Assembly: GCF_001975225.1 (NCBI RefSeq) | Contig: NZ_CP019445.1 | Coordinates: 1,116,001-1,180,000, forward strand | Direction of reading: 5' to 3' | DNA length: 64,000 nt | From: Kosakonia cowanii JCM 10956 = DSM 18146 | GTDB taxonomy: Bacteria; Pseudomonadota; Gammaproteobacteria; Enterobacterales; Enterobacteriaceae | Shown here: positions 57,709 to 58,701 of the stretch, piece after piece | How positions within the stretch are numbered: position 1 is the first letter of the stretch | Layout: each line of letters starts with the position of its first letter | The notes under the pieces: model-generated | Database searches by the model: none | What the model saw: the letters and a program-made list of their open reading frames with translations, nothing else | What the model was told of the DNA's origin: nothing | Made by a program: the position numbers and the translations under genes

Positions 57709-58701
57709 TTATTCGCGGAACAGCGCTTCGATATTCAGCCCTTGCGTTTGCAGAATTTCGCGCAAACGACGCAGACCTTCAACCTGAATCTGGCGAACAC
57801 GTTCACGAGTGAGACCAATTTCACGGCCTACATCTTCGAGTGTCGCAGCCTCATAACCCAGCAGACCGAAACGACGTGCCAGCACTTCACGCTGTTTGGC
57901 GTTCAGTTCGAACAGCCATTTGACGATGCTCTGTTTCATATCATCGTCTTGCGTGGTGTCTTCCGGGCCGTTGTCTTTTTAATCGGCCAGGATGTCCAGC
58001 AGCGCTTTTTCAGAATCACCGCCCAGCGGCGTATCAACTGAGGTAATGCGCTCGTTGAGACGCAGCATACGGCTGACATCATCAACAGGTTTATCTAACT
58101 GTTCAGCAATCTCTTCTGCGCTCGGTTCGTGGTCCAGTTTATGGGACAACTCACGCGCGGTACGCAGATAGACGTTCAGCTCTTTGACGATGTGAATCGG
58201 CAGACGAATGGTGCGGGTTTGGTTCATGATAGCCCGCTCGATGGTCTGACGAATCCACCAGGTCGCGTAAGTTGAGAAACGGAACCCACGTTCAGGGTCA
58301 AATTTTTCAACGGCGCGGATCAGCCCCAGGTTGCCCTCTTCAATCAGATCCAGCAGAGCCAGACCACGATTGCTGTATCGACGGGCAATCTTCACCACCA
58401 GACGCAGGTTACTTTCGATCATGCGACGGCGGGAGGCAACATCACCTCGTAATGCACGGCGTGCAAAATAAACTTCTTCTTCGGCCGTCAAGAGCGGGGA
58501 GTACCCGATTTCCCCAAGATAGAGCTGAGTCGCGTCTAAAACACGCTGTGTTGCACCCTGCGATAACAGCTCTTCTTCAGCCAGGTCATTATCACTGGGT
58601 TCCTCTTCTACCAAGACTTTTTCGTCAAAAGCCTCTGTTCCGTTCTCATCAAATTCCGCGTCTTCATTTAGATCATGAACTTTCAGCGTATTCTGACTCA
58701 T
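57709..58701 (-). pseudogene. rpoS: RpoS (sigma S), interrupted by an in-frame ochre stop
   Basis: The general stress and stationary-phase sigma factor. The full frame from ATG 58701 (MSQNTLKVHDLNEDAEFDEN, GGAG site) to 57709 has 331 codons, as in E. coli, but codon 241 is TAA (57981-57979) where E. coli has GAA (DILAD-E-K). Regions 1.2 to 3 are intact (YATWWIRQTIERAIMNQTR). Region 4, which reads the -35 box (VGREIGLTRERVRQIQVEGL), lies after the stop. The 240-residue product should not work as a sigma factor. A separate ATG at 57939 could start a 76-residue region-4 peptide but has no ribosome site. Confidence 0.93.

What the first reader, a model, noticed from the sequence alone, without database searches (positions are those of the whole stretch)
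57709..58701. rpoS carries an ochre stop at codon 241, upstream of sigma region 4
The frame is otherwise full length and conserved, but GAA (Glu in E. coli) is TAA at 57981-57979, a single G-to-T change. The truncated protein keeps core-binding and -10 recognition regions but not -35 recognition. The strain is predicted RpoS-negative unless it carries an ochre suppressor or uses readthrough. rpoS loss is common in laboratory-passaged enterobacteria, so this may be domestication rather than natural biology.
Basis: partly seen in the sequence, partly recalled or inferred. Interest (0 to 1): 0.75.

Follow-up and report, generated by a model that had tools for sequence, protein, structure and literature searches.

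The report
Early stop in stress-regulator gene rpoS
In this bacterium, a relative of E. coli, the gene for the general stress regulator RpoS is cut short by a stop codon that removes its last quarter; this is a common kind of loss, and the same stop was described before in a stock of E. coli, where it was reported to abolish RpoS function.

Summary
Confirmed, and ordinary. rpoS (57709-58701, minus strand) is a 330-codon frame with one internal TAA at codon 241 (57981-57979). Its product would keep regions 1.2, 2 and 3 and lose region 4. The stop is private here: none of the 14 other genomes held for its genus has a stop in rpoS, nor have the 100 other genomes with an over-cut-off RpoS among 145 relatives. 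Against the nearest relative it is the only amino-acid-changing difference, the other 17 being silent, so it is probably young. No second rpoS and no tRNA reading UAA (82 typed by program, one by eye) were found. The same allele is published: E. coli EDL933 stock ATCC 700927 has TAA at this codon, and the authors concluded that it alone causes the sigma-S defect, perhaps acquired during passage. A probe of this window found it in 1 of 5,426 E. coli genomes, EDL933; sequence divergence argues for two separate origins. Best reading: a recent loss-of-function rpoS allele. Slight residual activity, a base error, and natural rather than laboratory origin are not excluded.

The parts
57709..58701 (-). 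rpoS frame, 330 codons plus stop, interrupted at codon 241
57979..57981 (-). Internal TAA, codon 241
   Evidence: Glu in 50 of 50 gap-free relatives' sequences
58438..58536 (-). Sigma-70 region 1.2 (residues 56-88), before the stop
   Evidence: Pfam PF00140, 46.5 bits
58213..58422 (-). Sigma-70 region 2 (residues 94-163), before the stop
   Evidence: Pfam PF04542, 82.5 bits
57982..58182 (-). Sigma-70 region 3 (residues 174-240), ends at the stop
   Evidence: Pfam PF04539, 67.6 bits
57757..57918 (-). Sigma-70 region 4 (codons 262-315), behind the stop
   Evidence: Pfam PF04545, 59.2 bits; same place
57937..57939 (-). First in-frame ATG behind the stop (codon 255); no evident ribosome-binding site
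   Evidence: judged by eye from the 16 bases before it
58828..59967 (-). Upstream frame of 379 codons, probably nlpD (same order as annotated nlpD-rpoS in EDL933)
   Evidence: name by position and recall, no profile was run

Best explanation
This is a recent nonsense allele of the chromosomal rpoS gene of an enterobacterium, probably of the genus Kosakonia. Translation stops after residue 240, so the sigma factor keeps the parts that bind core polymerase and the -10 element and lacks region 4, which contacts the -35 element and the beta flap (shown: the stop and the domains; from general knowledge: the role of region 4; inferred: the effect in this strain). Without region 4 the stress regulon is not properly switched on, and more polymerase is left to the housekeeping sigma factor, which can favour growth on scarce nutrients at the cost of stress resistance. 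The same stop arose separately in E. coli EDL933 (ATCC 700927), where it was reported to cause the loss of RpoS-dependent acid resistance. The confidence given is for loss of function; the origin, laboratory or nature, is a weaker inference.
For: The stop and the domains on either side. Glu in 50 of 50 gap-free relatives' sequences. No stop in the rpoS of the 14 other genomes of the genus or of the 100 other over-cut-off genomes among 145 relatives. The four other TIGR02394 matches in this genome are below the cut-off. No UUA anticodon among 82 tRNAs typed by ARAGORN and one by eye. The same codon-241 TAA in EDL933, annotated as an internal stop, with published loss of function: strain like its own rpoS deletion, allele on a plasmid did not complement. 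A stop at codon 243 with low catalase. rpoS mutated in six of nine evolved E. coli lines.
Against: No phenotype, blot or reads for this strain. By its title, which two reference lists give, Gowrishankar 2003 studied region-4-deleted sigma-S in vitro; I recall that it was active on supercoiled templates, and the paper is not held. The published failure to complement is marked 'data not shown' in the paper. Catalase in the codon-243 strain was called low, not absent. The tRNA search scored 150 of 182 candidates.
Confidence: 0.8

Rival explanations
1. The truncated sigma factor is a hypomorph: without region 4 it still drives some promoters, such as those with strong extended -10 elements on supercoiled DNA, so the allele turns RpoS down instead of off.
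For: The core-binding and -10 regions are intact. The title of Gowrishankar 2003 in two reference lists; its finding of activity on supercoiled templates is recalled. Low, not absent, catalase in the codon-243 strain. Crl and a KatE-type catalase are unbroken here, so a remnant could act.
Against: The same stop in EDL933 gave acid tolerance like the rpoS deletion, and the allele did not complement a deletion strain.
Confidence: 0.12
2. The stop is a sequencing or assembly error, and the strain has a normal rpoS.
For: One base in one assembly; no reads are held. The genome is in 3 contigs, method unknown.
Against: rpoS was the only clear gene flagged as broken among 33 compared with the nearest relative, so the assembly does not look error-ridden; a single substitution that makes a stop in a gene known for frequent loss is more likely real, by inference.
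Confidence: 0.06
3. The stop is bypassed by readthrough, or translation restarts at ATG 255, so region 4 is made in one or two pieces.
For: An in-frame ATG lies at codon 255, ahead of the whole of region 4. No amino-acid change lies behind the stop.
Against: No tRNA with a UUA anticodon; RF2 and an RF1-like frame are open; no evident ribosome-binding site before ATG 255. The lack of change behind the stop is equally expected of a young stop.
Confidence: 0.02
4. On origin alone: the allele arose in nature under nutrient limitation, not in the laboratory. This is compatible with the best explanation; the confidence is conditional on the stop being real.
For: PMC3074542 states that rpoS-defective strains make up 20-30% of natural E. 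coli isolates; in its Table 1, 10 of the 22 ECOR strains sequenced have a nonsense, frameshift or deletion allele (the 22 were picked to span phenotypes). Six independent rpoS mutations within three infections (PMC7845604).
Against: Private to this genome within its genus. Passage before storage was suspected for the same E. coli allele. [quoted passage not shown] that paper is not held).
Confidence: 0.35

Closest known systems
rpoS allele of E. coli O157:H7 EDL933, stock ATCC 700927 (PMC1852560; record NZ_CP008957.1)
   Same: TAA at codon 241, otherwise full frame; single G-to-T change as published
   Different: Other genus: 127 base differences over the gene and 13 in the 123 bases around the stop, against 18 and 5 to this genome's nearest relative. 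Function was tested there, not here. The record does not say which EDL933 stock was sequenced
rpoS allele of VTEC strain N99-4390 (PMC2700278)
   Same: G-to-T nonsense in the same linker; loses 86 C-terminal residues
   Different: Codon 243, not 241; low catalase was measured there
Linker-truncated RpoS proteins in public data: P0081, P0084, P0086, P0112
   Same: End between regions 3 and 4, no Pfam region 4
   Different: They leave the RpoS sequence after about codons 224-227 into another frame (frameshift, inferred from the letters), not by a stop at 241

Membership tests
RpoS / sigma-38 (TIGR02394) | Gene matches the curated RpoS profile over its cut-off | tested here: met
   478.4 bits against 378.7, with the stop read through by the tool
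RpoS / sigma-38 (TIGR02394) | Regions 1.2, 2 and 3 in the translated product | tested here: met
RpoS / sigma-38 (TIGR02394) | Region 4 in the translated product | tested here: not met
   Region 4 lies only behind the stop
RpoS / sigma-38 (TIGR02394) | Located next to nlpD | tested here: inconclusive
   A 379-codon frame stands where EDL933 has nlpD; it was not tested by profile or alignment
rpoS codon-241 ochre allele (EDL933 ATCC 700927 type) | TAA at codon 241 in an otherwise intact frame | tested here: met
   Stops at codons 241 and 331 in both
rpoS codon-241 ochre allele (EDL933 ATCC 700927 type) | Loss of RpoS-dependent stress resistance | not testable with these tools
   Published for E. 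coli; no phenotype for this strain
Suppressed ochre allele | tRNA with an anticodon that reads UAA | tested here: not met
   83 tRNA matches, 82 typed by ARAGORN and one by eye, none UUA. 150 of 182 first-look candidates were scored; selenocysteine tRNA was not sought

The most novel reading that the evidence does not exclude
The linker before region 4 is a favoured exit for rpoS: the same nonsense at codon 241 in two genera, one at codon 243, and linker frameshifts in several public clusters. A region-4-less sigma-S would be a useful partial-function form that lowers the stress response without losing it altogether.
Probability: 0.05. Interest if true: 0.5.

Novelty: new member of a known kind. 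Interest (0 to 1): 0.15.

Why it matters
Users of this genome or strain should expect RpoS-deficient stress behaviour and should not take it as typical of the species. The recurrence of one identical nonsense allele in two genera is a small, concrete case of convergent rpoS loss with a published functional test to lean on. It changes no concept.

Tried and rejected
Ochre suppressor: not found in the tRNA census. A second, unbroken rpoS: not found. Transfer of the E. coli allele: argued against by divergence around the stop, though over the 61 bases nearest to it the window differs from EDL933 at 4 bases and from G011 at 3, too close to decide on their own.

General gene decay: not seen in the part compared. 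About 99.6 kb of G011 was set against the window; long alignments cover only about 23.6-47.5 kb and 52.4-64.0 kb of the window, so the first 23.6 kb and 47.5-52.4 kb were not tested. Of 94 G011 open frames, 33 had a counterpart and 3 were flagged: rpoS, and two short frames (158 and 97 aa; 80.6% and 75.3% identity) at about 28.1-28.8 kb, the 97-aa one inside a dispersed repeat; I did not resolve the 158-aa one. In the reverse direction 31 of 64 window frames had a counterpart and 3 were flagged: an 83-aa frame (best hit covers 64%), a 371-aa frame with 6 stops in G011 that overlaps a 281-aa frame on the other strand, and an antisense frame across rpoS. All three look doubtful as genes, by inference.

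Is codon 241 a mutational hot spot? The nearest relative's frame has 110 single-base routes to a stop, in 93 of 330 codons, 42 of them G-to-T. With many rpoS mutants described, one coincidence is not surprising, so I claim no hot spot. Decay behind the stop as a clock: 6 silent and no other changes behind it against G011, of which 2 fall on this branch by a vote of seven outgroups, some votes close; too few to date the stop.

The protein search with the 240 residues listed 120 of 8,000 hits. Papers: Gowrishankar 2003 and Bleibtreu 2014 are not held. 'Kosakonia' with 'rpoS' gave 16 papers, 12 listed, none about this allele by its title. 'rpoS' with 'G721T' gave one, PMC1852560. A search on rpoS, Enterobacter and premature stop led to PMC1852560 and PMC2700278. 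on plant-associated rpoS mutants gave nothing I used.

Full report
What is there. The frame at 57709-58701 on the minus strand is rpoS. It translates to 330 residues with one internal stop, TAA at codon 241, 57981-57979. The RpoS profile TIGR02394 matches about codons 48-328 at 478.4 bits (cut-off 378.7) and reports one TAA inside. The four other matches in the genome are below the cut-off, in open frames of 635, 285, 269 and 255 codons; the first two are RpoD and RpoH by length and recall. So there is no spare RpoS. The 240 residues before the stop carry Pfam regions 1.2, 2 and 3, and region 4 lies wholly behind it in an open 89-codon stretch. Residues 1-240 align end to end with four distinct solved RpoS chain sequences, such as 6omf_F and 5ipl_F; two more match from residue 52.

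Which organism. The window is part of a 4.86-Mb, three-contig genome. A member of its genus, G005, has a contig of 5,039,027 bases. That is the longest contig shown for a protein named from Enterobacter sp. R4-368, a relative of the window's LysR protein, and several other close named hits are Kosakonia. I infer the genus Kosakonia, to which I recall R4-368 belongs. The species is not known.

Is it private and young? Of 145 genomes searched (this one included), 101 have an over-cut-off RpoS; only this genome's shows a stop. Of the 44 without one, 40 are of 2.5 Mb or less; the other four are G041, G042, G111 and G134. A frame-shifted rpoS could hide among those below the cut-off. In the genus, none of the other 14 genomes held has a stop in RpoS. 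Fifty gap-free sequences of relatives have Glu at 241 in all 50 (at least two genomes are in twice). Two apparent TAA codons among 110 aligned loci are gapped, out-of-frame Vibrio alignments. Against the nearest relative, G011 (98.2% over rpoS), there are 18 base differences: 17 silent and the stop. By majority of seven outgroups, six silent changes and the stop fall on this genome's branch. Some of these votes are close, and the number behind the stop is too small to date it.

Could it still be read? The genome has 83 tRNA matches (150 of 182 candidates were scored). ARAGORN typed 82, none with an anticodon for a stop codon. The remaining weak one reads CCA by eye. The RF2 frame and an RF1-like frame are open. 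The first in-frame ATG behind the stop is codon 255, with no evident ribosome-binding site. Readthrough and restart are therefore unlikely, but not measured.

Is the neighbourhood decaying? In the parts of the window that align with G011, 33 of 94 G011 open frames had a counterpart, and rpoS is the only clear gene among the three flagged. The first 23.6 kb of the window was not compared. A KatE-type catalase and crl are unbroken in the genome. The frame upstream of rpoS stands where EDL933 has nlpD.

What is known. PMC1852560 (ten passages; sections 6 and 9 in full) reports that E. coli EDL933 from ATCC 700927 carries G721T in rpoS, a TAA stop. A second clone from the collection had it too. 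The strain was as moderately acid resistant as its own rpoS deletion (about 17% survival at most). A plasmid with the allele did not restore acid resistance to an rpoS deletion strain (data not shown in the paper). The authors conclude that the mutation alone caused the defect and suggest passage before storage. A 61-base probe of the window's own letters found one place among 5,426 E. coli genomes, in the EDL933 record NZ_CP008957.1. Its rpoS is annotated as pseudo with an internal stop and has stops at codons 241 and 331, as here. The only exact run of 28 bases between probe and EDL933 spans codon 241, so the probe sees only genomes with this allele and such flanks. An rpoS match of any kind was found in 5,364 of the 5,426 genomes. 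Over the gene the window differs from EDL933 at 127 bases and from G011 at 18; in the 123 bases around the stop, 13 and 5; in 61 bases, 4 and 3. The allele most likely arose separately in each.

Other precedents. PMC2700278 (passages): a VTEC strain with a G-to-T stop at codon 243, loss of 86 residues and low catalase. PMC3074542 (section 6 in full): 10 of 22 ECOR strains sequenced have a nonsense, frameshift or deletion allele, and the authors put rpoS-defective strains at 20-30% of natural isolates. PMC2973815 (passages): rpoS mutated in six of nine lines evolved for 50 days. PMC7845604 (passages): six independent rpoS mutations in three infections. PMC7527412 (passages) warns of rpoS attenuation on domestication. 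Public proteins P0081, P0084, P0086 and P0112 end in the same linker, by frameshift as I read them.

How it works. Shown here: the stop, the domains on either side, and the absence of a found suppressor tRNA or second copy. From published work on the same E. coli allele: loss of RpoS-dependent acid resistance. Inferred: in this strain sigma-S cannot hold the beta flap and the -35 region, the stress regulon fails to rise, and the cell gains in nutrient-limited growth. Residual activity of region-4-less sigma-S in vitro is known to me from the title of Gowrishankar 2003 in two reference lists and from recall. It stays possible but is disfavoured by the failed complementation.

Verdict. This is an ordinary, probably recent rpoS null or near-null allele, a new instance of an allele already described and tested in E. 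coli. Base error, laboratory or natural origin, and slight residual activity cannot be settled from sequence.

Noticed in passing
window 28075-28340: A dispersed repeat of about 260 bases between genes: 26 matches (some partial) in this genome, 26 in G011, 2 to 11 in eleven other same-genus genomes and none in G006 (14 genomes searched). No Rfam match in the window. As RNA it folds far better than shuffles (z -4.87). One of 72,556 plasmid records has a 70% match, a Klebsiella variicola plasmid. It looks like a mobile, structured repeat; I do not know a name for it.
   Followed up: partly
L184 189-256 (G000:C1:3628988-3629055): A weak tRNA-like match (30.6 bits, anticodon CCA by eye) beside an unusual tRNA-Met of 37.7 bits; ARAGORN does not call it. 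Perhaps phage-borne, which was not checked.
   Followed up: partly
G041 (whole genome, about 5.2 Mb, same family): A large, complete genome with no RpoS match over the cut-off in the relatives search (best match E 1.4e-84, RpoD-like), so it may have lost rpoS.
   Followed up: no
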